DNA of 32,795 nucleotides. Origin: an uncultured Eubacteriales bacterium. Lineage in GTDB: Bacteria; Bacillota; Clostridia; Peptostreptococcales; Anaerovoracaceae. A program made the translations under genes and the position numbers. The notes beneath the pieces are model-generated. The model was not told where the DNA came from and ran no database searches. It was given only the letters and a program-made list of their open reading frames with translations. Location: the NCBI GenBank assembly GCA_900315895.1, contig ONAY01000019.1:1-32795 (forward strand), read 5' to 3'. This document shows, piece by piece, positions 1-31,591 of this stretch (its first letter is position 1; each line of letters begins with the position of its first letter).

Positions 1-99
1 GAAAAATCATATCAAAAGCATGTCCGAAAACCGGGTGTGACCAGGAAAAATCATACATTTTTTGTGCTTCCGCGTGTCCACTTTCTGGGGTACAGTTTA
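1..99. repeat. 99-bp inverted repeat, copy 1 (IS3-like tip, interior off the window)
   Basis: These 99 bases match 31493-31591 perfectly in inverted orientation. Read on the minus strand, the outer tip at 94-75 is TGTACCCCAGAAAGTGGACA. It starts with TG and contains a CCCC-AAAGT-GGACA pattern like the terminal repeats of IS3-family (IS150 group) elements. The interior of the putative element would run left, off the window, so the transposase cannot be checked. Identity stops at base 100. The repeat identity is seen directly; the IS3 assignment is inference from the tip only. Confidence 0.75.
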
Positions 100-109
100 G
101 CGCCAATTC

Positions 110-249
110 TACGGCTTGATCGCAAAAAATAAAAATCAGCCGTAAATCCCTTCCCACCAATTTACGGCTGATTCTCGTTTTTTTTAATGAAGCCGTAAAA
201 CAGCTCATTTCGTTACGGCTGAAATTAAAAAAATGTGATCCAGCCGTAA
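110..249. repeat. Left hairpin array, three units with about 51-bp period
   Basis: Three stem-loops follow one another. Unit A pairs ACGGCTTGAT (111-120) with ATCAGCCGT (135-143). Unit B pairs TTTACGGCT (161-169) with AGCCGTAAA (191-199). Unit C pairs TTACGGCTG (213-221) with CAGCCGTAA (241-249). The shared TACGGCT starts at 110, 163 and 214, giving steps of 53 and 51. Each long loop is A- or T-rich. Arms of neighbouring units also pair across the short spacers; for example, 134-147 and 160-173 form a perfect 14-bp stem. The layout matches the larger array at 31191-31483. No coding potential is evident. Confidence 0.75.
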
Positions 250-251
250 AC

Positions 252-276
252 CCAGGTTCAAGTCCTGCTCTGAACC
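252..276 (+). other. tRNA 3'-end-like fragment
   Basis: Directly after the last array arm lies CAGGTTCAAGTCCTG, identical over 15 bases to the T-arm of the tRNA-Leu at 320-404 but on the opposite strand. It is followed by CTCTGAACCA, which looks like an acceptor 3' strand with CCA. No D-arm or anticodon arm precedes it, and the acceptor portion is about two bases short. It is therefore a fragment and not a working tRNA. It could be a relic of integration or of a lost tRNA gene. Confidence 0.45.
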
Positions 277-291
277 AACATGATAAATCAA

Positions 292-313
292 AAGCCCCTC
301 TTTTGAGGGGCTT
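292..313 (-). terminator. Terminator of the tRNA-Leu gene
   Basis: On the minus strand, seven bases after the encoded CCA, a perfect 9-bp stem AAGCCCCTC / GAGGGGCTT with a four-base loop is followed by TTTGATTT. Its position and form fit a rho-independent terminator of the tRNA transcript. Confidence 0.8.
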
Positions 314-319
314 GATCAA

Positions 320-404
320 TGGTGCGGACAACAGGACTTGAACCTGCAAGGTGTTACCCACACGGTCCTTAGCCGTGCGCGTCTGCCAATTCCGCCATGT
401 CCGC
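320..404 (-). tRNA. tRNA-Leu, anticodon AAG
   Basis: This is a class II tRNA of 85 nt with encoded CCA. Acceptor strands GCGGACA and TGTCCGC pair fully. The D-arm GGCGGAATTGGCAGACGCG is typical of bacterial tRNA-Leu. The anticodon stem CACGG/CCGTG encloses the loop CTAAGGA, which gives anticodon AAG. A short variable arm (GGT-AAC-ACC) and the T-arm GCAGG-TTCAAGT-CCTGT follow. A34 would normally be deaminated to inosine so that CUU and CUC, and perhaps CUA, are read. Most bacteria use GAG for this box, so the anticodon is noteworthy. A terminator follows at 292-313. Confidence 0.93.
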
Positions 405-468
405 ATGTGCGGTCTTTTTTGGACTGCCCTATCATATTACTCTTTTTATGCCAAAAGGTCAAGAAGTT

Positions 469-549
469 TTTTGCGGGAATTGGCGGATTTCATTAAGATA
501 TGTGAACTGTGCTTTTTTTCAATACTAAAGTTCCGCCAGGTCCGCAAAA
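469..549. repeat. Imperfect inverted repeat resembling the tRNA-Leu 5' end
   Basis: The arms 469-487 (TTTTGCGGGAATTGGCGGA) and 531-549 (TTCCGCCAGGTCCGCAAAA) are imperfect reverse complements. Bases 531-546 match the complement of the tRNA-Leu 5' end at 390-405 in 15 of 16 positions. The interval has no gene on either strand and ends just before the promoter at 555. It may be a decayed partial duplication of the tRNA. Confidence 0.4.
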
Positions 550-554
550 TATCT

Positions 555-583
555 TTGGTCTTGAGCTCCATATATGATAAAAT
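555..583 (+). promoter_or_regulatory. Promoter of the aldo/keto reductase operon
   Basis: A -35 TTGGTC and a -10 TAAAAT are separated by exactly 17 bp, upstream of a leader of about 95 nt. The leader holds a weak GGGTG/CACCC pairing but no riboswitch that I recognise. The start at 686 has the ribosome binding site AAGGAGAG. Confidence 0.55.
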
Positions 584-685
584 TATATTGGGTGAAGGGG
601 CGCCCGCCAAAGGTTAACACCCAACCATAATAGGCAACCCCGCACCACGGAAGATCGCTATCTAACACTTAAGGAGAGTGACCAT

Positions 686-1813
686 ATGGAAAACATCGTT
701 AAAGACGGACTTAAATTAGGATTTGGACTCATGAGGCTTCCAAGGCTTGGAGCCGGCAGCGAAAAAGATCCCTTCGACATGGAACAGACTAAGGCCATGG
801 TGGATAGATTCATCGCTGCAGGCGGCAAGTATTTTGATACAGCCTATGTGTACACCGGTTCAGAGGAGGCCACCAAGGAGGCTCTTTGCGACAGGTACCC
901 AAGAGACTCCTACTATTTGGCCAGCAAGCTGAACGCCACCGATTGGGCTGTCAAGTCCAAGGAGGAGGCCCTGGCACAGCTTGAGATCAGCCTCGAAAGG
1001 ACCGGAGCCGGATACTTCGACTTTTATCTTTTGCACTCTCTGGATCACGAGTGCGTGGACAGGTACGAGGATTACGGCGTATGGGACTTCGTCTGGGATG
1101 CCAAGGCAAAAGGCCTTGTAAAACATGCCGGTATCTCCTTCCACGATACGGCGGACGTCCTGGACAAGATCCTCACAGATCATCCTGAAACTGAGTTCGT
1201 ACAGCTTCAGATAAACTATCTTGACTGGGAGGATCCCGATGTTCAGTCCAGAGCCTGCTACGAAGTCTGTGTGAAGCATAATAAACCCGTGATCGTCATG
1301 GAACCCGTGAGAGGCGGACTTCTGGCCAACCTTCCGGAAAGGGCCACTGAGGTCTTCAAAGAGGCTGATCCCGACGCTTCCACCGCATCCTGGGCGGTGC
1401 GCTTCGCCGCATCCCTTCCTAACGTAAGCGTGGTCCTGAGCGGCATGTCCACCATCGAACAGGTAGAAGACAATCTTTCATATATGCAGGATTTCAAGCC
1501 CCTGAGCGACGAGGAACGTGATGTGATCAACAGAGCCTTGGAGGCACTTCTGGACGTGGACCGCATCCCCTGCACGGCTTGCCGTTACTGCACCCCGGGC
1601 TGCCCCATGGAGATCGACATTCCCAGGATATTCAAGGTCATGAACAATTACAAGATCTACGGCGACCTGGAGAAGTACAAGGAGATCTATCAGAGGCGCT
1701 TTAAGGATGTCAAGGCATCTGACTGCATTCAGTGCGGACAGTGCGAAGGAGCATGCCCCCAGCACCTTCCCATCGTGGAACTTCTTCAGGAAGTTGCTGC
1801 CACTCTGGAATAG
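686..1813 (+). CDS. Aldo/keto reductase with C-terminal 4Fe-4S domain
   Basis: This 375-residue protein is predicted to be a cytoplasmic NAD(P)H-dependent oxidoreductase. The N-terminal barrel keeps the aldo/keto reductase tetrad: D51 and Y56 in FDTAYVY, K81 in ASKL and H117 in LLHS. The C-terminal part has two ferredoxin-type motifs, C296-x2-C299-x2-C302-x3-C306-P and C347-x2-C350-x2-C353-x3-C357-P, which should bind two 4Fe-4S clusters. This matches the 'predicted oxidoreductase of the aldo/keto reductase family' common in anaerobes (COG1453 type). The substrate is unknown. Start is set by AAGGAGAG eight bases upstream. A radical SAM gene follows after 11 bp, so the two are probably co-transcribed. 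Confidence 0.92.
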   Translation: MENIVKDGLKLGFGLMRLPRLGAGSEKDPFDMEQTKAMVDRFIAAGGKYFDTAYVYTGSEEATKEALCDRYPRDSYYLASKLNATDWAVKSKEEALAQLEISLERTGAGYFDFYLLHSLDHECVDRYEDYGVWDFVWDAKAKGLVKHAGISFHDTADVLDKILTDHPETEFVQLQINYLDWEDPDVQSRACYEVCVKHNKPVIVMEPVRGGLLANLPERATEVFKEADPDASTASWAVRFAASLPNVSVVLSGMSTIEQVEDNLSYMQDFKPLSDEERDVINRALEALLDVDRIPCTACRYCTPGCPMEIDIPRIFKVMNNYKIYGDLEKYKEIYQRRFKDVKASDCIQCGQCEGACPQHLPIVELLQEVAATLE

Positions 1814-1824
1814 CGAGGTAATAC

Positions 1825-2433
1825 ATGGAGTACATAGGAGACGTTTTTTACGAGTACGGCGGAGGACTTTACGCCAATATCACCAATAAATGTCCTGACA
1901 GATGCGAGTTCTGCATCAGGTACATGGTGGATTCCCTGGGCGGGGCGGATTCCCTCTGGCTCAAGCGGGAGCCCACCATGGAGGAGATCCTGGAGCTTCT
2001 GGACCAGTGGGACTTGAGCAAGTTTGAGGAGCTGGTTTTTTGCGGTTACGGAGAGCCTACCGAAAGGCTTCCCGAGCTGATCGAGACCGCCGAGTATGCA
2101 AGGTCCAAGGCTCCCGGTCTGAAGATCAGGCTCAACACCAACGGGCTTTCTGACCTGATAAACGGCAGGGACACTCTGCCGGAACTGAACAGCGTGCTGG
2201 ACCGCATATCAGTCAGCTTGAACGCCAAGGGGCCCGAGGAATATCTGGCCCTCTGCCACCCAAGATTCGGCATCGGAGCTTTTGAGGCCATGCTGGACTT
2301 TACCAGACGGGCCAAGGAATGCATCCCGGACGTGACAATGTCCGTGGTTTCCGGCTCCATCCCCTATCAGGATATCGAACCCTGCAGGCGGATCGCCGAG
2401 GAGGAGATCGGGGTGAAGTTCAGGGTGCGCTAA
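1825..2433 (+). CDS. TatD-associated radical SAM protein
   Basis: This 202-residue protein carries the radical SAM cluster motif CPDRCEFC (C23-x3-C27-x2-C30) and GYGEP at 74-78, which corresponds to the GGE SAM-binding motif. Size and N-terminus fit the family named for frequent linkage to TatD nucleases (TIGR04038 type), whose reaction is unknown. No tatD gene is in this window. It is shorter than most radical SAM enzymes because the C-terminal half of the barrel is minimal. It sits 11 bp behind the Fe-S aldo/keto reductase, suggesting linked redox roles. Confidence 0.8.
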   Translation: MEYIGDVFYEYGGGLYANITNKCPDRCEFCIRYMVDSLGGADSLWLKREPTMEEILELLDQWDLSKFEELVFCGYGEPTERLPELIETAEYARSKAPGLKIRLNTNGLSDLINGRDTLPELNSVLDRISVSLNAKGPEEYLALCHPRFGIGAFEAMLDFTRRAKECIPDVTMSVVSGSIPYQDIEPCRRIAEEEIGVKFRVR

Positions 2434-2524
2434 AGGCGACCCGTGACCCGTCTGACAAACAGAATAAATAAAACAGTTGCGGTGCCCGGGCTGCCGGGCG
2501 CGCCGCAAAAGGAGGAACATAAAT

Positions 2525-3442
2525 ATGAACAAACCGACTTTGGTCATCATGGCCGCAGGAATGGGCTCCCGCTACGGCGGACTCAAGCAGATCGACAAGA
2601 TTTCAGGAGAGGACATAATCCTGGACTTTTCCCTTTACGATGCCCTTCGGGCAGGCTTCGGGAAGGCCGTGATCATAATCAAGAAGGAAAACGAGGCGGA
2701 TTTCAGAGCGCTGGTGGATGACCGCGCAGGCCGCCACATGGATATAGAGTATGCCTATCAGGATCTTTATGCCATCCCCGATGGCTTTCAGGTTCCCGAG
2801 GGAAGGGTCAAGCCCTGGGGCACCGCTCACGCGGTGATGTCCGCAGCTGACCACGTACACGAGAACTTCGCCGTTATAAACTCCGATGACTACTACGGCC
2901 CCGAGGCCTTCAAGGTCATGGCTGAATTCCTCAGCCAGGCGGATCCCGACGGAACGCCCTATCCCTTCTCAATGGTGGGCTACAAGGTAGAAAACACCCT
3001 GACCGACAACGGCTCGGTCTCCAGAGGAGTCTGCACCGAGACCGAGGACGGCTTCCTCTGCGACATAGTCGAGAGGACCAAGATCATGAGGCAGGACGGG
3101 CAGATCGTATTCCAGGACGAGGCAGAAGAGCTGCACCAGGTAGCTGAGGGTACTCCGGTATCCATGAACTTCTGGGGCTTCACCCCCGCCATGATGGACG
3201 AGATCAAGGCAGGTTTCCCTGCTTTCCTTGAGAATGCCATAGAGAACAACCCCATGAAGGGTGAATACCTCCTTCCCGAATGCGTGGACAAGCTGGTCAA
3301 AGCCGGCAAGGCCACCGTCAGGATGCTCAAGTCTCACGACCGTTGGTACGGCGTGACCTATAAGGAAGATAAGGAGAGCGTCTCCGCCTCCCTGAATTCC
3401 CTCAAAAAATCCGGGCTCTACCCCGACGATCTCTGGAAGTAA
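2525..3442 (+). CDS. Nucleotidyltransferase family protein (NDP-sugar pyrophosphorylase-like)
   Basis: This 305-residue protein starts with MNKPTLVIMAAGMGSRYGG, the nucleotide-binding loop of sugar-1-phosphate nucleotidyltransferases (GMGSR at 12-16, K21). KPWGTAHAV (96-104) and NSDDYYG (119-125) are the expected base-contact and metal-binding segments. It should transfer a nucleotide to a phosphorylated sugar or related acceptor; the acceptor is not evident. The start at 2525 is chosen because AAAAGGAGG lies just upstream; an ORF start at 2477 precedes that site and is less likely. A GC-rich imperfect hairpin occupies 2481-2508 before the gene. Confidence 0.85.
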   Translation: MNKPTLVIMAAGMGSRYGGLKQIDKISGEDIILDFSLYDALRAGFGKAVIIIKKENEADFRALVDDRAGRHMDIEYAYQDLYAIPDGFQVPEGRVKPWGTAHAVMSAADHVHENFAVINSDDYYGPEAFKVMAEFLSQADPDGTPYPFSMVGYKVENTLTDNGSVSRGVCTETEDGFLCDIVERTKIMRQDGQIVFQDEAEELHQVAEGTPVSMNFWGFTPAMMDEIKAGFPAFLENAIENNPMKGEYLLPECVDKLVKAGKATVRMLKSHDRWYGVTYKEDKESVSASLNSLKKSGLYPDDLWK

Positions 3443-3453
3443 AGGTGAATGAA

Positions 3454-4008
3454 ATGATCAAGAACATGGAACAATCAAAGGAGGCCGGCATCCTTCAGGC
3501 TGCTGACATGATGGTCTGTGCAGCCCTCACCGCTCCCAAGGGAAGCGGCAAGGACACCATAAGAGCCAGTGTGGTCACAGGCGAGGAAAAGGACAGATTG
3601 AGAGACAAGATGCTGGCTCTGTCCGAAGCCTATGGCATGCCCAACTTCGCAAGAGACGCCGGAAACGTTGATAACGCTCAGGCGGTGGTTCTCATCGGCT
3701 GCACCGGAACCTATTTCGGCATGTCAAACTGCGGGATCTGCGGTTTTGAGGATTGTGGACAGTGCCGCGCCGCTGGAGCCAGATGCGTCATTACTGTGTC
3801 CGACCTGGGCATAGCCGTTGGAAGCGCAGTTTCCAAGGCCTCTGACATGAGGATCGACAACCGCGTCATGTATACCGCAGGCAAGGCCGCACTTAAACTG
3901 GGCTTCATCACTGATGACACCGCCATCTGCTACGGCATTCCCCTTTCGGTCTCCAACAAGAGTATTTTCTTCGACAGAGGCCCCGGCGCAGTGATCAACC
4001 TTAAATAG
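3454..4008 (+). CDS. DUF2148 ferredoxin-domain protein
   Basis: This 184-residue protein has clustered cysteines: C83, C93, C96, C101, C104 and C111, including CGICGFEDCGQC. That fits the DUF2148 family of uncharacterised proteins with a ferredoxin-like cysteine region; Fe-S binding is likely but the role is unknown. I prefer the ATG at 3454, with AAGGTG six bases upstream. A GTG at 3445 lies inside that ribosome binding site. The gene begins 11 bp after the nucleotidyltransferase stop, so the two are probably one transcript. Confidence 0.8.
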   Translation: MIKNMEQSKEAGILQAADMMVCAALTAPKGSGKDTIRASVVTGEEKDRLRDKMLALSEAYGMPNFARDAGNVDNAQAVVLIGCTGTYFGMSNCGICGFEDCGQCRAAGARCVITVSDLGIAVGSAVSKASDMRIDNRVMYTAGKAALKLGFITDDTAICYGIPLSVSNKSIFFDRGPGAVINLK

Positions 4009-4033
4009 TAATCAGACATTCAAGGAGAAAACA

Positions 4034-5353
4034 GTGTTACCAGATAAAGACATTCTCATGCCCCTCATCGAAGAGGCGGCTCAAAAGGCCGTAGAGATCA
4101 GGCGTGATCTTCACATGCACCCTGAGGTGTCATCTCACGAGGAGCGCACAGCCAAGGTCATCGCCGACACCCTTAAGGATCTCGGCGTGGAGACCAGGGA
4201 GAACCTCGGAACACCCCTTCCCCCCGATCCGGAACACGTCAAGGCCGTTCTCACTTCCATAATCGCAGCAGATTCCCTGAAGGATATGGGCATCAGCATG
4301 GAGGATCTGGCCAACATGACCCTGCCTCCCGGACATGGAGTCATGGGCACTCTATACGGCGATGACTCGACCCGGGCTATTGCCTTAAGAGCGGATATTG
4401 ACGCCCTCCCCATTACAGAGGTGACGGATTCTCCGTTCAAATCTCAGAACCCCGGCGTCATGCACGCCTGCGGTCATGACGTCCACACCGCGTCCCTTCT
4501 CGGAACAGCCATGGTGCTCAAAAAATATGCCGCCCAGGGCGGCCATCTGCCCCTCTCCGTCAAGTTCCTCTTCCAGCCCAATGAAGAGGGCACAGGAGGC
4601 GCAGCTTCCATGATCGCAGAGGGCGTCCTTAAGGACCCCGAGGTAGAGAGCATTCTGGCCTTCCATGTGGATCCCACCCAGGAGTACGGCAAGGTGCGGT
4701 TTTTCCCCGGCATCATGTACGCAGCCTGCACAGATTTCAAGATCACGGTCCGGGGCAAAGCCTCCCACGGCGCTCACCCCGACCTGGGCATCGATCCTAT
4801 CCCCTGCGCCTGCGATATAGTGCTGTCTCTCCAGACCATACTGACCAGGAGGCTGGACCCTGCAAGCCGTGCAGTGCTCACCATCGGCGCCATCAAGAGC
4901 GGATCCACCACCAGCCAGATCCCAGGTGAATGCGAGATGATCGGTACCATTAGGACCTTGGACGAGAAGTCCAGAGACCTGATCGAAGATGAGATGCGCA
5001 GGCTCACAGATTCCATCGCCAACGCCTACGGCTGCACCTGCGAGACCGTCATCGGCGAGATGTATCCCGTGCTTCGCAACGACCCCGAAGTCTATGACAC
5101 CATCCACTCCGTGGCCGAGGACCTTGTGGGCGAAGAAAACCTGGTGGCAAGCGACGCTCCAAGCTTCAGCACAGATGACTTTTCATTCTTTACGAGCCAG
5201 GTAAAGGGCTGCTACTTCCATCTGGGAAGCACAGTGCCGGGATCCACTGAGATCCACGACATCCACAGCGACCTCTTCGACCCCGACGAAAGGGTGATCA
5301 AGATGGCCATTGCCATGGAAGTCTTCTCATGCCTGAGGCTGATGGGAATGTAG
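4034..5353 (+). CDS. M20D-type amidohydrolase with an internal insertion
   Basis: This 439-residue zinc- or manganese-dependent hydrolase belongs to the IAA-amino-acid/hippurate amidohydrolase group, which releases acyl groups from N-acyl amino acids or trims peptides. Metal ligands are visible in HACGHDVH (H144, C146, H148) and PNEEGTG; LRADIDALP (118-126) is the family's strand. Compared with typical members there is extra sequence at about 58-100, rich in Pro, Met and Asp, before the strand leading to the active site. The start is GTG with AAGGAG upstream. It follows the DUF2148 gene by 25 bp. Confidence 0.9.
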   Translation: MLPDKDILMPLIEEAAQKAVEIRRDLHMHPEVSSHEERTAKVIADTLKDLGVETRENLGTPLPPDPEHVKAVLTSIIAADSLKDMGISMEDLANMTLPPGHGVMGTLYGDDSTRAIALRADIDALPITEVTDSPFKSQNPGVMHACGHDVHTASLLGTAMVLKKYAAQGGHLPLSVKFLFQPNEEGTGGAASMIAEGVLKDPEVESILAFHVDPTQEYGKVRFFPGIMYAACTDFKITVRGKASHGAHPDLGIDPIPCACDIVLSLQTILTRRLDPASRAVLTIGAIKSGSTTSQIPGECEMIGTIRTLDEKSRDLIEDEMRRLTDSIANAYGCTCETVIGEMYPVLRNDPEVYDTIHSVAEDLVGEENLVASDAPSFSTDDFSFFTSQVKGCYFHLGSTVPGSTEIHDIHSDLFDPDERVIKMAIAMEVFSCLRLMGM

Positions 5354-5382
5354 ATATTTTGGATAAAACAGGAGATCAAAAA

Positions 5383-6018
5383 ATGAAAAACATTCGTAAA
5401 TTTTTTGCGTTAAGCCTTATCATAGTCATGGCCTTCACCCTGGCCTCTTGCGGAGGCGCTCAGACGCCGGCTGAACCGGAAGAGCCGGAGGCCACTCCGA
5501 CCATGGCATTGGACACCATGCTCAAGTCCATTCAGGACCTGGATTTTGAGACTGCCCAGCAGTACTACTCAGGAGACATGGGCTCCCTTGAGGGCATGAG
5601 CGAGAACGCCTCATCTGAGACTGCTGAAGTGGTGGACAAGATGCTCAAGGATGCTCTGAATTTTGAATATGCCCTGGACAACGAAGTCATCTCATCCGAC
5701 GGCCAGACCGCTACCGTAGACATAGTATTTACCACCTACAACATGGGCGAGATCTTCGAGAAGATCATCGAGGAACTCACGGCCAGGGCAACCGTTCTCC
5801 AGGAGGGCGGCATGACTGCGGACCAGTTCCAGACTGAGATGAACAATATCGTCATCGGCATCTACAACGACATCCTCAAAACAGCCGAAAAGAATCTTGA
5901 GATATCCCTCACTGTCAACCTCACCAAGGTCGACGGACAGTGGAAGGTGGACGACCTGAAGGATTCCACAGAATTCCTTGACGCCCTCACCGGCGGACTT
6001 ATCAGCTACAACAGCTGA
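5383..6018 (+). CDS. Putative lipoprotein
   Basis: This 211-residue protein has a type II signal peptide: KNIRK, a hydrophobic run, then the lipobox LASC with Cys near residue 23. A Pro/Glu-rich linker follows the lipidated cysteine. The body, with alternating charged helices and a C-terminal VDGQWKVDDL strand, recalls NTF2-like DUF4878/DUF5105 lipoproteins, but I cannot assign a function. The start is fixed by AGGAGA at 5370; an upstream in-frame ATG at 5329 lies inside the previous gene. The stop codon falls inside the hairpin 5998-6022, which lacks a clear U-tract. Confidence 0.82.
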   Translation: MKNIRKFFALSLIIVMAFTLASCGGAQTPAEPEEPEATPTMALDTMLKSIQDLDFETAQQYYSGDMGSLEGMSENASSETAEVVDKMLKDALNFEYALDNEVISSDGQTATVDIVFTTYNMGEIFEKIIEELTARATVLQEGGMTADQFQTEMNNIVIGIYNDILKTAEKNLEISLTVNLTKVDGQWKVDDLKDSTEFLDALTGGLISYNS

Positions 6019-6021
6019 TAA

Positions 6022-6055
6022 GCGCAAAAAATTATGGCAAAAGAGTTTTTTGCGC
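6022..6055. repeat. Perfect inverted repeat GCGCAAAAAA / TTTTTTGCGC
   Basis: Ten-base arms at 6022-6031 and 6046-6055 flank a 14-base spacer between the lipoprotein and threonine aldolase genes. The right arm runs into GCCGTATTTCTGA, which is also found in the 31191-31483 array. It may be a solitary relative of that repeat or a terminator-like hairpin. Confidence 0.5.
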
Positions 6056-6063
6056 CGTATTTC

Positions 6064-6072
6064 TGATATAAT
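6064..6072 (+). promoter_or_regulatory. Extended -10 promoter of the threonine aldolase gene
   Basis: TGATATAAT is an extended -10 element about 40 bp before the start codon. No good -35 lies at 17 bp; the T-run at 6046-6051 is the nearest candidate. The 29-kb promoter shows the same TGATATAATGG. Confidence 0.5.
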
Positions 6073-6110
6073 GGAAGTGTGTTACGATCATCCAATCAAG
6101 GAGGCTCGAT

Positions 6111-7136: not shown

Positions 7137-7164
7137 CTGAAGCGGATGTTTTCAAAGCATATTA

Positions 7165-7194
7165 AAAGACCGGCTGTGAAAGCCGGTCTTTTTA
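7165..7194. terminator. Bidirectional terminator
   Basis: An 11-bp perfect stem AAAGACCGGCT / AGCCGGTCTTT with loop GTGAA is followed by T residues on both strands. It separates the convergent threonine aldolase (+) and YfcC transporter (-) genes. Confidence 0.85.
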
Positions 7195-24159: not shown

Positions 24160-24160
24160 C

Positions 24161-24565: not shown

Positions 24566-24571
24566 GTTTTT

Positions 24572-24625
24572 CACCTACCTTCGATGTCCATCATACCATA
24601 CCGGTAGGTGGATTTCAATCCACCT
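24572..24625 (-). promoter_or_regulatory. rrf2 promoter with predicted Rrf2 operators
   Basis: On the minus strand -35 TTGAAA (24618-24613) and -10 TATGAT (24595-24590) are 17 bp apart. CACCTACC (24610-24603) lies in the spacer and GGTAGGTG (24579-24572) lies just downstream of -10; together they are an inverted pair. A separate palindrome AGGTGGATT-TC-AATCCACCT (24606-24625) covers the -35. This layout suits autorepression. Confidence 0.65.
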
Positions 24626-24658
24626 GCCGCCCTGCCTCAAAACACCTGCGGCTCACCC

Positions 24659-25096
24659 TTAATGGTTCTCGGCGCAGCTGGCGCAGTCCACCACTCCCTT
24701 GAATTCTTCGGGATCGTAGGGGATGCCGTTTTTGTCGTAGTAATCCTTGAGAGCCAGCTTGATGGCCTCTTCGGCCAGCACGGAGCAGTGAAGCTTGTGG
24801 ATGGGAAGGCCGTCCAGGGCCTCCGTCACAGCCTTGTTGGTGAGGGCCGCCGCCTCTTCAACGGGCTTGCCCTTGATGAGCTCGGTGGCCATGGAGCTGG
24901 AAGCTATGGCGCTGCCGCAGCCGAAGGTCTCGAACTTCACGTCAGAGATCACGTCGTCGTCTATTTTGAGATATATCTTCATGATGTCTCCGCACACCGG
25001 ATTGCCGGCCTCGCCCACACCGTCAGCGTCCTCGATTACGCCCACGTTCCTGGGGTTGCGGAAATGATCCATTACCTTATCACTGTATAAAGCCAT
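24659..25096 (-). CDS. iscU: Fe-S cluster scaffold protein, IscU/NifU-N type
   Basis: This 145-residue scaffold assembles Fe-S clusters with sulfur from IscS. The three ligand cysteines are C35 in GNPVCGDIM (with D37), C60 in TFGCGSAIASSS and C104 in LHCSVLAEEAI. The C-terminal CASCAENH adds two more cysteines, as in many clostridial forms. It follows iscS by 26 bp with AGGAGG upstream. No HscA/HscB genes are present, as is usual for Bacillota. Confidence 0.93.
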   Translation of the reverse strand: MALYSDKVMDHFRNPRNVGVIEDADGVGEAGNPVCGDIMKIYLKIDDDVISDVKFETFGCGSAIASSSMATELIKGKPVEEAAALTNKAVTEALDGLPIHKLHCSVLAEEAIKLALKDYYDKNGIPYDPEEFKGVVDCASCAENH

Positions 25097-25122
25097 TGTG
25101 TTTTCCTCCTCTTGCTCCGTAC

Positions 25123-26313
25123 CTATTCACTGAATACGTGGGTCCTCTTGCCTGTTACCAGATCTCTCCAGAAGGGCGACATGTTCCTGAGATATGTCAC
25201 CACATCCGTGACCGCCTGAATGATCTGATCCACGTCTTCCTCTGTGGTGTCCTCTCCGATGGTCAGCCTCAGGGACCCGTGGGCGACCTCGTGGGGCCTG
25301 CCGATGGCCAGCAGCACGTGGCTGGGATCCAGCGACCCGGAAGTGCATGCGCTTCCCGATGATGCGCAGATGCCCTTGTCGTCCAGAAGGAGCAGCATGG
25401 ACTCCCCTTCGATCCCCTCGAAGCAGTAGTTCACATTGCCGGGAAGACGATGCTCGCGGCTTCCGTTCAGTTCGCCGTAGGGGATCTTGTCCAGGCCGTC
25501 CATCAGGCGGTCTCTCAGGGCCGTCATCCGGGCAGCGTTCTCCTCCATGTGGTCGCAGGCCTCAGTGAGAGCCGCAGCCATGGCCACGATGGCGGGGATG
25601 TTCTCTGTTCCCGCGCGCTTGCCCCTCTCCTGGGCTCCGCCGTTGATGAGATTGTGGAGCACTATGCCGCGCCTTGTGTAGAGTACTCCGATGCCCTTGG
25701 GCCCGTGGAACTTGTGGGCCGAAAGTGAGAGCATGTCGATGTTTTGCTCTTTTACATCTATCTTTATGTGTCCTGCCGCCTGCACAGCGTCGGTGTGGAA
25801 GACCACGCCCTTCTCCCTGCAGATCTTTCCGATCTCAGCTATGGGCTGGATAGTGCCGATCTCGTTGTTTGCATACATTATGGTGACCAGGCAGGTATCC
25901 TCGCGAATGGCCTCTGCCACCTGTGCAGGGTCGATGATGCCGGTGCTGTGTACGTCAAGAAGGGTCACCTCAAAGCCTTCCTTCTCAAGCTTCTCCAGGG
26001 TGTGGAGCACGGCGTGATGCTCGAAGGCGGTGGATATTATATGTTTCTTTCCTTTTTTCTCTCCGGATCTTGCGGCGGATAAGATCGCCTGATTGTCCGC
26101 CTCGCTTCCGCCTGATGTGAATGTGATCTCCCAGGGGTTGCAGTTCAGGCACTTCGCCACCTTCTCCCTGGCCTCCTCCAGGGCCTCCTTGGCCTTCTGA
26201 CCGAAGGAGTAAAGGCTGGACGGGTTGCCGTAGTACTCGCTCATGTATGGCAGCATTGCCTCGATGGCGGTTCGGCTCATCCTTGTGGTCGCCGCGTTGT
26301 CAGCATATATCAT
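25123..26313 (-). CDS. iscS: Cysteine desulfurase
   Basis: This 396-residue PLP enzyme converts cysteine to alanine and a protein-bound persulfide for Fe-S assembly. It opens with [11 protein letters not shown], has the Schiff-base lysine K201 in [10 protein letters not shown] and the persulfide cysteine C323 in SSGSACTSG, whose loop is of the IscS/NifS long type. Start at 26313 has GAGG upstream; an earlier in-frame start at 26364 would lie within the predicted operator region. The operon iscS-iscU is transcribed from 26397-26369. Confidence 0.94.
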
Positions 26314-26343
26314 TGTCTTTTCCTCTTTCTTTACATGGTTTTT

Positions 26344-26397
26344 ACCTACCTCTGTGGTAGGCAAATAGAATATACTATTATTTACCTACCTAGTCAA
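26344..26397 (-). promoter_or_regulatory. iscS promoter with predicted Rrf2 operators
   Basis: On the minus strand -35 TTGACT (26397-26392) and -10 TATATT (26374-26369) are exactly 17 bp apart. GGTAGGT (26390-26384) lies right after the -35. Downstream of the -10 there is an inverted repeat CCTACC-N5-GGTAGG (26345-26361). Binding at either site should block RNA polymerase. Confidence 0.7.
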
Positions 26398-26441
26398 GGG
26401 GTAAAAGCAAAATATTTTACTCAAAATTTATCAAAACACTG

Positions 26442-26492
26442 TTGACAGCCACCGCAGTTTATTCTATACTACCTACCAAACAGATAGGTAGT
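26442..26492 (+). promoter_or_regulatory. cysK promoter with predicted Rrf2 operator
   Basis: Consensus -35 TTGACA (26442-26447) and -10 TATACT (26465-26470) are 17 bp apart. A perfect inverted repeat ACTACCTA-N9-TAGGTAGT (26468-26492) overlaps the -10 and the expected transcription start. The half-site is the same as at iscS and rrf2. Confidence 0.72.
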
Positions 26493-26507
26493 CAAAGGAG
26501 GCATATC

Positions 26508-27440
26508 ATGTCGAACATCAAAACTAATCTCATTGACCTCATCGGAAAGACACCACTGTTCTTGGCGTCGAGATACAGCAAAGATGCGGGTCTTCATGGC
26601 GCGCTTCTTGCGAAGCTGGAGTATTTGAATCCCGCAGGCTCCGTCAAGGACAGAGTGGCATGGTCAATGATCCTGGACGCGGAGGAGAAGGGCATCCTCA
26701 AGCCCGGTGCCACCATCATCGAGCCCACCAGCGGCAACACCGGAATAGGCCTGGCAGCGGTGGCTGCCTCCCGCGGTTATCAGGCGATCTTCACCCTGCC
26801 TGAGACCATGAGTGTGGAGCGTCGCAAACTTCTGGCAGCCTACGGAGCCCAGCTGGTCCTCACTGAGGGGGCCAAGGGTATGAAGGGTGCCATCGAGAAG
26901 GCCAATGAGCTGAACGCCGAGATCCCAGACTCCGTGATCCTGGGTCAGTTCGTGAACCCCGCAAACCCTGCGATCCACTACAGGACCACCGGCCCGGAGA
27001 TCTGGAAACAGACCGAGGGCAAGGTGGACATCTTCGTGGCAGGCGTAGGCACCGGCGGAACCATCACCGGCGTGGGCCGCTACCTCAAGGAGCAAAACCC
27101 TGAAGTCAAGGTCGTCGCAGTGGAGCCCGCCACTTCTCCCGTACTTTCCAAGGGAACTCCGGGAGCCCACAAGATCCAGGGCATCGGAGCAGGCTTCGTC
27201 CCCGAAGTGCTGGATACCGGCATCTATGACGAAGTCATAGCCATCGAGAACGAGGACGCCTTCGCAGAGGGAAAACGTTTCGCAGTCACCGAGGGAATAC
27301 TCGTAGGCATCTCCTCCGGTGCGGCTCTCAAGGCCGGACAGATCCTGGCCTCCCGCCCCGAAAACCAAGGCAAGTGCATCGTGGTGCTTCTCCCCGATTC
27401 CGGAGACAGATACCTGTCAACTCCTCTGTTTGGAGAGTAA
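26508..27440 (+). CDS. cysK: Cysteine synthase (O-acetylserine sulfhydrylase)
   Basis: This 310-residue PLP enzyme makes cysteine from O-acetylserine and sulfide. The Schiff-base lysine is K47 in NPAGSVKDR, the phosphate/substrate loop is TSGNTG (74-79), and GTGGTITG and GISSGAA follow as expected. The start is ATG 26508 with AAAGGAGG upstream; a longer frame from 26442 would begin on the promoter. It is divergent from iscS, and cysE, which supplies its substrate, lies 4 kb downstream on the other strand. A strong terminator follows. Confidence 0.95.
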   Translation: MSNIKTNLIDLIGKTPLFLASRYSKDAGLHGALLAKLEYLNPAGSVKDRVAWSMILDAEEKGILKPGATIIEPTSGNTGIGLAAVAASRGYQAIFTLPETMSVERRKLLAAYGAQLVLTEGAKGMKGAIEKANELNAEIPDSVILGQFVNPANPAIHYRTTGPEIWKQTEGKVDIFVAGVGTGGTITGVGRYLKEQNPEVKVVAVEPATSPVLSKGTPGAHKIQGIGAGFVPEVLDTGIYDEVIAIENEDAFAEGKRFAVTEGILVGISSGAALKAGQILASRPENQGKCIVVLLPDSGDRYLSTPLFGE

Positions 27441-27450
27441 TATCCATAGA

Positions 27451-27486
27451 AAAGAACCCGGTATACGAAGGTATACCGGGTTCTTT
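27451..27486. terminator. Bidirectional terminator after cysK
   Basis: A 16-bp perfect stem, AAAGAACCCGGTATAC and its complement, with loop GAAG. It ends in TTCTTT on the plus strand and serves both cysK and the convergent small membrane-protein gene. Confidence 0.88.
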
Positions 27487-27505
27487 GCGTCTTTGATCAT
27501 TCAAT

Positions 27506-27871
27506 TTAATCCTTTATGCGTATGACGTAATCGGGTTTGTCGGGCAGATACTTGATCCTGACCACGCTCCCTTCGTGAAGATCTCCGTACCAGTACTCTT
27601 GATCCTTGTAAGTCTCCACGCTCTTTCCGCTGGCAAGCCTGGCCTCCACCGTCTCTCCGTTCTCGGTCCTGTAGGTCACAAAATATGCATAGTCCGTGGA
27701 GGTGGCCAGCGTATCCGGATCTGTACTGGTGTTCTCCCATATCCTGGTCACCACAGCTTCAGCGTCAAGTCCGGCCTCTTTGAGGTCTCTGTTCCTTTTG
27801 GCAGTGATCAGCATCAAGCAGATGACCACCACTACTACTGCAACGATCACGAAAATAATAATCTTATCCAT
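27506..27871 (-). CDS. Small membrane-anchored protein of unknown function
   Basis: This 121-residue protein has one strongly hydrophobic segment at about 4-22 followed by KRNR, so the C-terminal domain of about 95 residues is likely in the cytoplasm with the membrane helix as anchor, or outside if the helix is a signal anchor. The domain is beta-rich (YAYFVTYRTENG, GSVVRIKYLPDKPDYV) and resembles DUF3592-like proteins, but I cannot assign it firmly. It appears to be alone between cysK and the polymerase gene. Confidence 0.65.
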   Translation of the reverse strand: MDKIIIFVIVAVVVVVICLMLITAKRNRDLKEAGLDAEAVVTRIWENTSTDPDTLATSTDYAYFVTYRTENGETVEARLASGKSVETYKDQEYWYGDLHEGSVVRIKYLPDKPDYVIRIKD

Positions 27872-27928
27872 AGTTCAGATCCTTTCATGTATTTATTATA
27901 AGTTTTTGTTCCTTACTGTTCGAAACAT

Positions 27929-29236
27929 CTACCTCCCGCCCCGGCGGATGGTACCAGAGCCGAACTTGCCATTTATCATGTCCAGAAGTCTGTCCATCTC
28001 CGGATCAGCCCTTAGCGCAGCCTGCTCCCGGGCTTTGGCCAGATCCTCCAGAGTCATCTGGCTTTCCTCTTCATCTCCCTGGGTAAGGCTGCTGACGCCC
28101 ACACCCAAAAGCCTGATACCGGACTGCTCTTTGTACAGTCCCTGCTCCCCGCCTTCTCCGAACATGAGAGATCTGAGAAGCTTCATTGAGCTTTGAAATA
28201 TCTCGTTACCGTCATCTGTGGCCCGTTCCAGCCTGGTCTGCCTGGAGTGCCTGCGAAAATCCGATGTCTTCACCGTAACCGTGACGGTAAGACCCTTGAC
28301 CGAGTCTTTTTTAAGGCGGGCAGACACCTTGTCCGAAAGCTTCCTTATGATGACCGGCGCCTGTTCCTCGTAATTGTCTCTTGTTATGTCCTGAGCCGTG
28401 GTGGTCTCGTTGGAGTAGCTCTTGGCCGCCTCGCGCTCCACCCGGACCAACGTGCTTCCCCGGCCGTTGGCGGCCTGGTGGATGTATTCTCCAGAACTCT
28501 CCCCCAGAAGGACCCTTAGGATGGCCGGATCCATCGCAGCAGCGTCGCCGATGGTCCTGATACCCATACCCTCCAGCTTGGCGGCGGTCTTGGGTCCGCA
28601 GCCAAAAAGATCACCGATCTTAAGTGGCCACATCTTGGACGGCACCTGGTCTGGCCAGAGCTCATGGGTCAGGTCGGGTTTTCGGAAGTCCGAAGCCATC
28701 TTTGAGAGAAGCTTGTTGGTGGAGATCCCCACGTTCACCGTGAATCCCAGGGCCCGCCGGACGTTGTCCCTGATCATGTCCGCCACCTTCACCGCAGCCT
28801 CCCGCACCGCAGGATCAGCCGGATCCACCTCACCGATCCCAGGCATCTCAGAAATGAACTCCGTTATGTCCACAAATGCCTCATCTATGGAAGCGGGCTC
28901 CACCAGCCTGGAATAGCTGCGCAAAATATCCATGAACCTGTGTGAATAAGCTCTGTAGGTATCAAAATCCGAGGGTACTAGGATCAGGTCCGGGCATTTT
29001 TTCAGAGCCTGAGCTACCGGCTCTCCGGTGGTCACTCCGTACTTCTTGGCCGGGATGGACCTGGCTGTAATGACTCCGTGGCGGGTGGCCACGTCTCCTC
29101 CAACGGCTGAGGGCACAGTCCTCAGATCCAGAGCCTTTGGGTCCTCCTTGAGTCTCTTCACCGCTGACCAGGACAGGAAGGCGCTGTTCACATCCACGTG
29201 GAAGATTATTCTGTTTTCGCTGTTTTCTCTGTCCAT
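27929..29236 (-). CDS. dinB: Y-family DNA polymerase (Pol IV/DinB-like)
   Basis: This 435-residue translesion polymerase has the palm motif FHVDVNSAF with metal ligand D15 and SIDEAFVD with D118/E119. A helix-hairpin-helix region (GCGPKTAAKLEGMGIRTIG) and a little-finger domain with YSNETT follow. The C-terminal part has a Glu-rich linker and ends in an Arg-rich tail. The start at 29236 is preferred because AAAGG lies upstream; the frame continues to 29383 but would cover the promoter of the divergent gene. No LexA-type box was recognised. Confidence 0.9.
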   Translation of the reverse strand: MDRENSENRIIFHVDVNSAFLSWSAVKRLKEDPKALDLRTVPSAVGGDVATRHGVITARSIPAKKYGVTTGEPVAQALKKCPDLILVPSDFDTYRAYSHRFMDILRSYSRLVEPASIDEAFVDITEFISEMPGIGEVDPADPAVREAAVKVADMIRDNVRRALGFTVNVGISTNKLLSKMASDFRKPDLTHELWPDQVPSKMWPLKIGDLFGCGPKTAAKLEGMGIRTIGDAAAMDPAILRVLLGESSGEYIHQAANGRGSTLVRVEREAAKSYSNETTTAQDITRDNYEEQAPVIIRKLSDKVSARLKKDSVKGLTVTVTVKTSDFRRHSRQTRLERATDDGNEIFQSSMKLLRSLMFGEGGEQGLYKEQSGIRLLGVGVSSLTQGDEEESQMTLEDLAKAREQAALRADPEMDRLLDMINGKFGSGTIRRGGR

Positions 29237-29311
29237 TCCGGAGCCTTTCGTATATTTCAAGTCGATTTTATCATATTGCGCAGGGTTTTGGGGGCTGGGG
29301 GCGCGAATTTT

Positions 29312-29342
29312 TTGCACAATGAAGGGAAGGCTGTGATATAAT
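29312..29342 (+). promoter_or_regulatory. Promoter of the YczE-like gene
   Basis: A -10 TATAAT (29337-29342, with upstream TG) lies 19 bp from TTGCAC (29312-29317). The first start codon usable by transcription from here is the ATG at 29350, about eight bases after the -10, so the mRNA may have almost no leader. Confidence 0.5.
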
Positions 29343-29349
29343 GGCGGAA

Positions 29350-30036
29350 ATGAACTTGAAAACCCTTCCCCAAAATTCAACAACAGGCGAGATAATCCGT
29401 GGCATGATAGTGGCGGCCATCAGTCTTTTCCTCAATGGACTGGGGGTCTACCTGACCATACACGCGGCCATCGGCGTCGGCCCCTGGGACGTGCTTAACA
29501 TAGGCCTGTCCAAGACCCTGGGCATTCTGTACGGCAACGCTTCGATCACCGTGGGATTCATCATCCTGGGGATCGACATCCTGCTTAAGGAGCCCATCGG
29601 CATCGCCATGATCATTGATACACTGGTGGTGGGCAAGGCAGTGGACTTTTTTAACTGGATCGACGTGGTGCCCGTGCCCGGGACCCTGGTGGGCAGTATC
29701 GTCATGATGATCATCGGCCTCTTCATCATGGGTTACACCCAATACGGCTACATGTGGGCATCCCTGGGCTGCGGCCCGAGAGACACCCTTCTCGTGGGCC
29801 TCAAAAGGCATGCCGGCCGCTTCCCCATCGGCGGGGTCAGCATAGTGCTGCTGTCCCTGGTCACCCTGATCGGCTGGCTACTGGGCGGGCCTGTAGGGAT
29901 CGGCACCATCATCTGCGCCTTCCTGGCAGGACCCATCATGCAGTTCGCCTTCTGGACCGTGGGCTTCATCCCCACCGAGGTGGACCACCAGAACATACTA
30001 AAGTCCTTCCGGATCATTTTCGGGAAGACCAGGTAG
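29350..30036 (+). CDS. YczE/YitT-like integral membrane protein
   Basis: This protein of about 228 residues has five to six hydrophobic helices and the signature IHAAIGVGPWDVLNIGLS, then GCGPRDTLLVGLKR, which mark the YczE (COG2364) family. Its function is not established; some relatives are tied to peptide or antibiotic production, but no such genes are here. The ATG at 29341 overlaps the predicted -10 and cannot be used by that promoter. ATG 29350 would be nearly leaderless. A later Met at 29404 is a third option with no good ribosome binding site. Confidence 0.8.
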   Translation: MNLKTLPQNSTTGEIIRGMIVAAISLFLNGLGVYLTIHAAIGVGPWDVLNIGLSKTLGILYGNASITVGFIILGIDILLKEPIGIAMIIDTLVVGKAVDFFNWIDVVPVPGTLVGSIVMMIIGLFIMGYTQYGYMWASLGCGPRDTLLVGLKRHAGRFPIGGVSIVLLSLVTLIGWLLGGPVGIGTIICAFLAGPIMQFAFWTVGFIPTEVDHQNILKSFRIIFGKTR

Positions 30037-30039
30037 CCA

Positions 30040-30068
30040 TTGCCAAGTTCCCGCAGGGAATATATAAT
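30040..30068 (+). promoter_or_regulatory. Promoter of the NYN-domain gene
   Basis: -35 TTGCCA (30040-30045) and a perfect -10 TATAAT (30063-30068) are 17 bp apart. They begin directly after the YczE stop codon. Confidence 0.75.
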
Positions 30069-30105
30069 CGTAATTAAGATAAACATAAGATACAGGAGAA
30101 TATAT

Positions 30106-30912
30106 ATGAGTGACGAAACCAGGATCGCCCTTCTCATAGACGCAGAAAACATCAGCGCCCAGTACGCTGACTACATATTGGACGAGGTTGCCAACTACGG
30201 CACCTGCTCCTACAAGAGGATCTACGGCAGTTGGGACCGCATAGTCAAGACCAAGTGGGAGTCCGAGATCAACAAGAACTCCCTGAAGCCGGTGATGCTC
30301 CTCAACAACACCAGGGGCAAGAACGCATCCGACTCCGCTCTGATCATCGACGCCATGGACATCCTCTATGCCGGAAACATCGACGGATTCTGCATAGTGT
30401 CCACCGACTCCGACTTCACCGCCCTGGCTCGCCGTCTAACCGAGGCAGGCAAGATGGTCATCGGCATGGGCGAGTCCGACAAGGCCACCGAGGCCCTGGA
30501 GAACGCCTACGACAAGTTCGTCTACATCGACGTGCTGGCCCGCCAGGCCGAGGAAGAGCGCGCCGCGGAGCTTGCCGCAGAGGCCAAGGCCCGCAAAGCC
30601 GCCCGGGAGGCTCAGGACGCCAAGTCCAAGGACAGCAAAAAACCCAAGGACGGCAACCTTCCCAGTAAGAAGATGCTGGAGAAGCGCATCAAGGAGATCA
30701 TCATGGACAACGATGACAAGTCCCGTCCCACCGATCTGGGCGAGATCGGCCAGGAGCTGAACAAGACCTTCCGCACCTTCGACGTCCGCTACTATAACCG
30801 CAAAGGCGGTAAGAAATACAAATATCTCAAAGAATTCGTAAGTGACATCAAGGGTCTCTCCCTCGATGAGAGCTCAAGGAACAGGATCTACGTGAGCCTG
30901 GAAAAGAAATAA
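30106..30912 (+). CDS. NYN-domain protein with OST-HTH/LOTUS-like domain
   Basis: This 268-residue protein has an N-terminal NYN (PIN-like) nuclease domain with acidic residues in LLIDAENIS (D12), ASDSALIIDAMD (D76, D82) and STDSDFTALARRL (D101, D103). A charged Ala/Lys/Glu coiled-coil linker (about 145-185) leads to a C-terminal OST-HTH/LOTUS-type domain (about 188-268, with RYYNRKGGKKYKYLKEF), which in relatives binds RNA. It is likely an RNA-processing or RNA-binding protein. The start has CAGGAG upstream. A 63-residue protein follows after 11 bp. Confidence 0.87.
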   Translation: MSDETRIALLIDAENISAQYADYILDEVANYGTCSYKRIYGSWDRIVKTKWESEINKNSLKPVMLLNNTRGKNASDSALIIDAMDILYAGNIDGFCIVSTDSDFTALARRLTEAGKMVIGMGESDKATEALENAYDKFVYIDVLARQAEEERAAELAAEAKARKAAREAQDAKSKDSKKPKDGNLPSKKMLEKRIKEIIMDNDDKSRPTDLGEIGQELNKTFRTFDVRYYNRKGGKKYKYLKEFVSDIKGLSLDESSRNRIYVSLEKK

Positions 30913-30923
30913 AGGAGGAAAAT

Positions 30924-31115
30924 ATGGGTTTCTTAAAGAATCTGGTAAATGCTGCCAAGGAGGCAGATGCCAAGCAAAAGGCTGAACAAGCAAAGCAGAA
31001 AGCAGAAAGAGATGCCATGTTCGGCAACATGGGCAAGGTGGGAAAAGTCCTGAAGTTCATCGATGACCACACCGAGGATGACAAGGAAGATCCCTTCAGA
31101 AACGACGATTTCTAA
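30924..31115 (+). CDS. Small charged protein of unknown function
   Basis: This 63-residue protein begins with MGFLKNLVNAAKEAD, continues as a Lys/Glu/Ala-rich helix with coiled-coil character, and ends in an acidic tail (HTEDDKEDPFRNDDF). The ribosome binding site AAAGGAGG overlaps the intergenic gap right after the NYN stop, so it is surely translated from the same mRNA. I do not recognise a family. A role with the NYN protein is an inference from the operon alone. Confidence 0.72.
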   Translation: MGFLKNLVNAAKEADAKQKAEQAKQKAERDAMFGNMGKVGKVLKFIDDHTEDDKEDPFRNDDF

Positions 31116-31129
31116 TATTATGATTAGGA

Positions 31130-31164
31130 AGCCGGGACCGCAAGGTTCCGGCTGTTTTGGTTTT
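31130..31164 (+). terminator. Terminator of the NYN operon
   Basis: A 10-bp stem AGCCGGGACC / GGTTCCGGCT (one G-T pair) with loop GCAA is followed by GTTTTGGTTTT. Confidence 0.8.
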
Positions 31165-31190
31165 GGGGGTTGATACGCGTAGCGGTGAGC

Positions 31191-31483
31191 TTTACTGCCT
31201 GAGAGCATTTTTTGAATATAAGCAGTAGAAAAATAAGCGGGTTTACTGTCTGTATTGAATTTTTTGCGCGCAGACAGTAAAAGGGATCGGGGTACGGCTT
31301 GAAAACACTTTTTCTCTCTCAGGCCGTATTTCTGAGCGCAAAAATACCGCTTGAAAACCATTTTTCTCTCCCAGGCCGTATTTCTGAGCAAAAAATACCG
31401 CTTGAAAACCATTTTTCTCTCTCAGGCCGTATTTCGGAGCAAAAAATACCGCTTGAAAACCATTTTTCTCTCTCAGGCCGTAT
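31191..31483. repeat. Right hairpin array, six units with 51-bp period
   Basis: Units begin at 31191, 31242, 31293, 31345, 31396 and 31447, so the step is 51 (once 52). Each has two inverted arms around a T-rich loop. Arms are TTTACTGC/GCAGTA in unit 1, TTTACTGTCTG/CAGACAGTAAA in unit 2, TACGGC/GCCGTA in unit 3, and TACCGC/GCCGTA with one mismatch in units 4-6. The stem is kept while its sequence changes between units 1-3, whereas units 4-6 are near-identical recent copies. Because 51 is a multiple of three, both strands show open frames with a 17-residue repeat; I treat these as artefacts. Confidence 0.8.
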
Positions 31484-31492
31484 CACCCTGAA

Positions 31493-31591
31493 TAAACTGT
31501 ACCCCAGAAAGTGGACACGCGGAAGCACAAAAAATGTATGATTTTTCCTGGTCACACCCGGTTTTCGGACATGCTTTTGATATGATTTTTC
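31493..31591. repeat. 99-bp inverted repeat, copy 2 (IS3-like end remnant)
   Basis: This is identical to the complement of 1-99. The tip TGTACCCCAGAAAGTGGACA starts at 31498, and the interior would run to the right, but similarity cannot be followed past 31591 because copy 1 ends at the window edge. No transposase frame follows; cysE ends at 31619. It is therefore a short remnant or a non-autonomous element. It begins 10 bp after the last GCCGTA of the hairpin array. Confidence 0.75.

What the first reader, a model, noticed from the sequence alone, without database searches (positions are those of the whole stretch)
86..31502. Repeat end sits exactly 10 bp from TACGGCYTGA at both arrays: possible hairpin-loop-targeted element
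At the left the 99-bp repeat ends at 99 and TACGGCTTGA starts at 110. At the right, read on the minus strand, the repeat ends at 31493 and TACGGCCTGA starts at 31482. The 10 intervening bases differ, yet the distance and the motif are the same. That position corresponds to the short spacer between array units, which itself folds as a loop. IS1397 and ISKpn1, IS3-family elements of enterobacteria, are known to insert into loops of palindromic REP/BIME units. This could be an independent analogue in a clostridial genome.
Basis: partly seen in the sequence, partly recalled or inferred. Interest (0 to 1): 0.75.

Follow-up and report, generated by a model that had tools for sequence, protein, structure and literature searches.

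The report
Jumping gene targets hairpin-array spacers
A bacterial jumping gene of the IS3 family sits, at each of its five ends found in this genome, exactly ten bases from a hairpin-shaped repeat, which suggests that it picks landing sites by their palindromic surroundings.

Summary
The window is one whole MAG contig. The "99 bp" is the assembler's overlap length, but the outer end (TAAACTGTACCCC...) is real: it is the left terminal repeat of an IS3-family element, recognised from relatives with both genes and both ends. Three other contigs of the genome begin in what is very probably the right end of the same element, and all three reach a TACGGC palindrome after exactly 10 bp: 5 of 5 ends, at 4 loci. 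One contig pair rebuilds an empty site: a 4-bp duplication (GCGC) lies in the centre of a 16-nt spacer between two hairpin units, and the 51-bp array period is restored. The arrays also occur without the element, here and at the orthologous cysE locus of two related species, so they very probably came first. No consistent link with RAYT transposases was seen. The insertion lies between hairpin units, not in their own loop; neighbouring arms can pair around it, but the predicted fold of the whole site does not do so. Relatives of the element show only a partial excess in large hairpin loops (7 of 38 sites against 3.9% of intergenic positions). Hairpin-targeted IS are known (IS1397, ISKpn1, ISPsy8, IS1272); this is a new variant.

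The parts
75..99 (-). left terminal inverted repeat (TAAACTGTACCCCAGAAAGTGGACA) of an IS3-family element, outer base at 99; the element continues off the contig start
   Evidence: identical 25-base terminus in L013 (open orfA and orfB, both ends, 3-bp duplication) and in six Allobaculum copies, some with damaged orfB
1..99 (-). 99-bp tip of the element's left end; inner limit set by the contig end (assembly overlap)
100..109 (.). 10-nt gap; its first four bases GCGC are read as one copy of the 4-bp target duplication shared with contig C37
110..144 (-). hairpin unit L1 (35 bp), nearest to the left copy
163..197 (+). hairpin unit L2 (35 bp)
214..248 (-). hairpin unit L3 (35 bp)
31193..31227 (+). 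hairpin unit R1 (stem TACTGC..GCAGTA)
31244..31279 (+). hairpin unit R2 (stem TACTGTCTG..CAGACAGTA)
31293..31328 (+). hairpin unit R3 (TACGGC)
31345..31380 (+). hairpin unit R4
31396..31431 (+). hairpin unit R5
31447..31482 (+). hairpin unit R6, nearest to the right copy
31483..31492 (.). 10-nt gap at the right copy
31493..31591 (+). second copy of the left-end tip; fragment without the rest of the element
   Evidence: the cysE-like ORF ends 27 nt later; a terminator seen by eye between array and cysE in two related species is not seen here
31619..32518 (-). cysE-like gene (serine acetyltransferase; name from recall, no family search run), anchor of the right array
   Evidence: ORF; orthologues beside hairpin units in L218 and L187/L226

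Best explanation
The two 99-bp tips are left ends of one IS3-family insertion sequence (two genes, HTH_Tnp_2 orfA and DDE-type orfB, in its relatives). Its transposase inserts it at a fixed place in a family of intergenic hairpin arrays (35-36 bp palindromes, period about 51 bp) of this genus: the centre of the 16-nt spacer between two units, with a 4-bp duplication flanked by 6 nt and then GCCGTA / TACGGC arms. Shown: the terminal repeat, the fixed 10-bp distance at 5 of 5 ends, one rebuilt empty site, arrays without the element. Inferred: that the C15/C21/C37 tip is the right end of the same element, that the other loci share the geometry on their unseen side, and that the transposase recognises the symmetric arms (as sequence or as structure). 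The left copy continues outside the contig; the right copy is a remnant next to cysE.
For: Same 25-base terminus in relatives with both genes. Relatives L003 and L013 exceed the NCBIfam IS3 transposase cut-off and match PF00665 and PF20310. Contig starts C15, C21 and C37 carry an identical 99-bp tip with an orfB-like C-terminus FYEYITTGVYPDLMII* and an end resembling that of L003, each 10 nt from TACGGC. Tips occur at C7, C15, C21 and C37 only among 112 contig ends, 6 of them masked, and no other tip was found in 802 kb; a whole-genome search with the left tip gave the two window copies only. C7-left plus C37 share GCGC; removing one copy restores a 51-bp unit spacing (periods 51, 53, 51, 51). 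By my count the genome has 30 units at 12 loci, 8 of them without an element end; the orthologous array beside cysE has no element in G001 and G006.
Against: No full copy is assembled here: the best orfB hit is 27% identical, a different element, and none passes E 1e-60 with the nearer query. Only one of the four loci shows both flanks, so one duplication and one spacer centre are seen directly. Its 4-bp duplication differs from the 3 bp usual in relatives, and a chance match among the pairs and lengths tried is a few per cent (hand estimate). Relatives are mostly not in hairpin loops: 31 of 38 sites by the measure, including L003, whose right end is nearest to ours. The ends of contigs C1, C11 and C25 are masked, and about half of the genome interior was not scanned for the right-end tip.
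Confidence: 0.85

Rival explanations
1. The hairpins belong to the mobile element, whose true ends lie outside them, so the fixed distance is part of the element.
For: Same distance at all 5 ends.
Against: The 10 bases between end and hairpin differ at every end; relatives end at the terminal repeat, many with duplications beside it; 8 of 12 array loci here carry no element end (own count); orthologous arrays exist without it in two species.
Confidence: 0.03
2. Sequence-specific target: the transposase reads a TACGGC-type motif on double-stranded DNA at a fixed distance; palindromy is a by-product.
For: All 5 ends lie next to TACGGC arms; 4 of 8 TACGGC-type loci but 0 of 4 TACTG-type loci carry the element (own count; about 0.14 by hand, not significant).
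Against: Some relatives lie in hairpin loops with quite different stems: L265, L251, L261, L273, L247.
Confidence: 0.35
3. Structure-specific target: the transposase cuts the loop of a cruciform or single-stranded hairpin formed between neighbouring units.
For: The inter-unit pairing around the target folds alone at -6.3 kcal/mol (DNA parameters), near four of the five single units (-4.1 to -6.6; the fifth -9.8). Stems vary with compensation. Relatives in large loops of other hairpins.
Against: In the minimum-energy fold of the 198-nt rebuilt site the target spacer is an unpaired linker, while the spacers on either side are loops. C15 and C21 show only one unit on the visible side.
Confidence: 0.3
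4. Safe-haven bias: insertions are random, but only those in dispensable arrays survive.
For: The sites seen are intergenic.
Against: Survival cannot fix the distance to the base at 4 loci (about 2e-14 given intergenic DNA).
Confidence: 0.02
5. Assembly artefact: repeat and distance come from misassembly.
For: The 99-bp length equals the assembly overlap; the right copy passes through a 99-mer shared with the left copy.
Against: The outer ends diverge at the same base on five contig sides, and the terminus is a known kind of IS end in other assemblies.
Confidence: 0.05

Closest known systems
IS1397 and ISKpn1 (IS3 family) in palindromic units of enterobacteria
   Same: IS3-family element, intergenic palindromic repeat as target, specificity ascribed to the transposase (as cited in PMC1525189, passages seen)
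ISPsy8 (IS3 family) in Pseudomonas syringae REPs
   Same: all copies at one fixed place, short duplication, insertion on a symmetry axis (PMC1525189, Results section read)
   Different: ISPsy8 breaks the REP itself with a 3-bp duplication; here a 4-bp duplication in the centre of the spacer between two whole units
IS1272 / TnSha1 (IS1182 family) in staphylococcal hairpins
   Same: targets inverted repeats without a sequence consensus (PMC4923244, abstract and passages seen)
   Different: IS1272 deletes part of the hairpin and makes no duplication; here the units stay whole and a duplication is seen
REP/BIME repeats with RAYT transposases
   Same: short intergenic palindromes in clusters
   Different: fixed period near 51 bp, central T run, and no consistent RAYT link

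Membership tests
IS3 family | DDE/rve transposase with orfA-orfB arrangement | tested here: inconclusive
   met in relatives L003 and L013; in this genome only an orfB-like C-terminus on the right-end contigs is seen
IS3 family | related terminal inverted repeats | tested here: met
   left TAAACTGTACCCCAGAAAGTGGACACG, right TAAAGTGCTCCCCATGTCAAGGACACG
IS3 family | short target duplication (3-5 bp, recalled) | tested here: met
   GCGC at the one paired site; mostly 3 bp in relatives, absent at some
REP-targeting IS of the IS1397/ISKpn1 kind | insertion within the palindromic unit | tested here: not met
   the units next to all 5 ends are whole; the insertion lies 10 bp outside
REP-targeting IS of the IS1397/ISKpn1 kind | every copy at the same position relative to the palindrome (type 1 association of PMC1525189) | tested here: met
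   5 of 5 ends found
IS1182/IS1272 hairpin-targeting elements | partial deletion of the hairpin, no duplication | tested here: not met
   one site
REP/RAYT system | associated Y1 (RAYT) transposase | tested here: inconclusive
   Y1_Tnp in 3 of 7 congeneric genomes, this one included (159-aa ORF at the end of contig C22 and a fragment in C31; not tested whether RAYT or IS200-like); none in G001, which has most units and is about 91% complete
Rfam RNA families | match at or above the gathering score | tested here: not met
   one tRNA only in 11 sources holding arrays

The most novel reading that the evidence does not exclude
Part of the IS3 family in Firmicutes selects targets by two-fold (palindromic) symmetry or hairpin structure rather than by sequence: this element uses hairpin-array spacers, a second, different IS3-type element in the same genome lies in transcription-terminator palindromes, and some relatives in other genomes sit in large hairpin loops.
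Probability: 0.4. Interest if true: 0.65.

Novelty: new variant of a known kind. Interest (0 to 1): 0.5.

Why it matters
It adds a case in a clostridial genome to hairpin-targeted IS and gives a clean geometry (6 + 4 + 6 nt between inverted arms) in which sequence reading and structure reading by an IS3 transposase can be told apart by simple arm mutations. It also describes a hairpin-array repeat family with compensated stems, without an Rfam match, that serves as a landing pad.

Tried and rejected
Tip against plasmids: no match; against phages: one weak 27-bp hit, MT836953, which proved to hold a related IS. No match at E 0.001 in 348 other genomes of the family. The TACGGC pattern in 349 genomes gave mostly unrelated background, by eye. 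Relatives: my first reading by eye suggested that most sit in hairpins; the controlled tests cut this to a minority; 8 of 38 sites with p<0.05 and 4 with p<0.01 against control positions in their own flanks, median p 0.49, combined p 3e-4, but Kolmogorov-Smirnov p 0.17 (not significant); 7 of 38 (6 of the 22 intergenic sites) with stem score at least 8, against 424 of 11,026 control positions, which overlap one another. Stem and loop limits were chosen after looking, so both tests are exploratory. Dropped before the count of 38: loci with bit score under 150, sites with either terminal score under 28 or less than 40 nt of flank, and duplicates. The first covariation count on 15 units was weak (2 pairs with changes on both sides, 61 of 500 shuffles as high). 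In the larger set the number of such pairs also does not exceed shuffles (3 against 2.9), while the number of such cells does. Orientation (T-rich strand of the nearest unit runs with the element at 5 of 5 ends, by eye) is weak. Papers: PMC6211511 (IS1447), passages seen, no target preference for hairpins in them; PMC5771124 (ISSau2), none of five terms found; PMC9208149, PMC2817692 and PMC12306157, passages seen, nothing on this question; PMC12306157 counts palindromes in some Bacillota. The IS1397/ISKpn1 papers PMC169884 and PMC95333 are not held. Nothing on IS3 elements in clostridial hairpin arrays appeared in the listings of searches; only openly licensed papers were searched.
Full report
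What is in the window. The window is the whole of contig C7 (32,795 bases) of a 1.74-Mb, 56-contig genome. Its first 99 bases recur as an exact reverse complement at 31493-31591. In this assembly 13 sets of readable contig ends share an identical terminal 99-mer, so the inner limit of the 'repeat' is the assembler's overlap. The outer limit is biological: both copies diverge at the base before TAAACTGTACCCCAGAAAGTGGACA.

What the tip is. A scan of genome contigs with TGTCCACTTTCTGGGGTACAG gave 11 loci. Nine of them (six Allobaculum copies, L011, L012, L013) have the full 25-base terminus without mismatch. L013 has an open orfA, an open orfB, both ends and a 3-bp duplication. Aligned Allobaculum copies, two of which carry a 26-column gap in orfB, show the other end, GTGTCCTTGACATGGGGTACACTTCA. 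L003, a contig in the phage collection, holds a further related element. OrfA of L003 and L013 matches PF20310; orfB matches PF00665 and exceeds the NCBIfam IS3 transposase cut-off. So the window tip is the left terminal repeat of an IS3-family element. No orfB of this group was found in the assembled genome, as can happen with a collapsed multicopy repeat.

The fixed distance. A search of the genome with the left array pointed at the starts of contigs C15, C21 and C37. They share an identical 99-bp tip that ends ...GTGTCCTTGACATGGGGAGCACTTTA and encodes FYEYITTGVYPDLMII*, like the right end of L003. In the first 1000 bases of all 112 contig ends, 6 of which are masked, left or right tips (up to 6 mismatches) occur at C7, C15, C21 and C37 only; in 802 kb of sequence no other was found. 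Each tip continues with 10 different bases and then TACGGC; with the window's right copy, 5 of 5 ends are at 10 nt (two mismatches allowed in the arms; three of five with one mismatch). Expected frequency in intergenic-like DNA is 3.8e-4 per strand-position.

The rebuilt target. C7-left and C37 share GCGC at the junction. Joined with one copy of it they form a five-unit array with spacings 51, 53, 51 and 51, and the duplication lies in the middle of a 16-nt spacer between GCCGTA and TACGGC. C15 and C21, with other first bases (CGTT, AGTT), are read as further insertions whose left flanks are not assembled. The window's right copy is a fragment: the cysE-like ORF ends 27 nt after it, and the terminator visible between array and cysE in G001 and G006 is not seen (by eye).

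The hairpin arrays. Fifteen units were aligned and modelled. The model gives 33 matches in this genome, 58 in G001, 11 in G006, 1 in G004 and none in G002, G003 and G005 at E <= 0.5; only 150 candidates per genome were scored, so these are lower bounds. Counting both-strand duplicates once, I count 30 units at 12 loci here. Units are 35-36 bp palindromes, mostly with a T run in the centre and stems such as TACGGCTG/CAGCCGTA, TACTGCTT/AAGCAGTA and TACTGTCTA/TAGACAGTA. In 71 aligned matches (68 distinct; a few are both strands of one unit) 96.2% of cells pair and 47 cells change on both sides against 20.4 in shuffles; the number of pairs with such changes does not exceed shuffles (3 against 2.9), and the alignment is fitted to the model. 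The right array has orthologues beside cysE with four matches in G001 and one in G006, without the element, so the array there is very probably older than the insertion. No Rfam family matches. A Y1 transposase exists in this genome and in two congeners but not in G001, so a RAYT link is not supported, though not excluded.

Relatives. Transposase relatives were found in 10 of 349 family genomes at E <= 1e-60, 10 of 391 class genomes at E <= 1e-70, one of them the same genome, and in IMG/VR contigs. For 38 distinct sites with both ends, 7 lie in a 6-24 nt loop of a stem scoring at least 8, against 424 of 11,026 intergenic control positions (3.9%); at a score of at least 12, 4 of 38 against 67 of 11,026. 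The strongest are L273, L265, L251, L261 and L247; both copies in genome G587 (L251, L261) are in such loops. The other 31, including L003, are not. So some members of the group lie in hairpin loops more often than expected, and strict array targeting is so far seen only here.

How it most likely works. IS3-type transposases make staggered cuts a few bases apart (recalled). Inverted arms placed symmetrically around the cut would suit a two-fold symmetric strand-transfer complex (inference); the arms could be read as double-stranded sequence or as an extruded hairpin. The data do not separate the two. All five ends lie at TACGGC-type arms, and the fold of the whole rebuilt site leaves the target spacer as a linker, which favours sequence; loops with other stems in some relatives favour structure.

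Placing. Fixed-site insertion in palindromic repeats is reported for IS1397, ISKpn1 and ISPsy8 (PMC1525189: passages and Results section read) and hairpin targeting for IS1272 (PMC4923244: passages). This case is a new variant: the unit is left whole, the target is the centre of the spacer, and the repeat family matched nothing known in the searches made.

Noticed in passing
contig ends C31s, C50s, C15e, C9e (left end) and C9s, C27s, C28e (right end) of the same genome (s = start, e = end): A second IS3-type element (orfA start MSGKKKYSDEFKLKV) whose outward flank looks like half a transcription terminator at 6 of 7 ends by eye, and at 5 of 7 by a rule met by 417 of 92,809 intergenic-like strand-positions (0.45%); C9e and C28e join, with a 4-bp duplication CCGG, to the palindrome AAAGACAGGCC[CCGG]GGCCTGTCTTT with the insertion on its dyad. 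Another possible pair (C50s, C27s; TGA) gives no palindrome. The rule was set after seeing the data.
   Followed up: partly
window 253-277: A tRNA 3'-end-like fragment (CAGGTTCAAGTCCTGCTCTGAACCA, by eye) directly after the left array; ARAGORN finds only the tRNA-Leu at 320-404 minus.
   Followed up: no
window 32697-32795: The right contig end shares its terminal bases with three other contig ends (C36s, C49s, C23e), so another repeated element (ACCAACGCTTTTTGTCCTATA near its edge) cuts the contig there.
   Followed up: no
contig ends C10s, C14s, C6e, C27e, C29e, C36e of the same genome: Another multicopy sequence (TTGACCTAAGCGGTGGGTAGTTGAC near its edge) at six contig ends, not identified.
   Followed up: no
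L011 at 2142 and L012 at 370: The same terminus stands in a Christensenella MAG with no transposase gene apparent in the ORF list and followed by tandem TGGACAGAG-type repeats, and in a Eubacteriaceae MAG with what looks like a decayed element.
   Followed up: no
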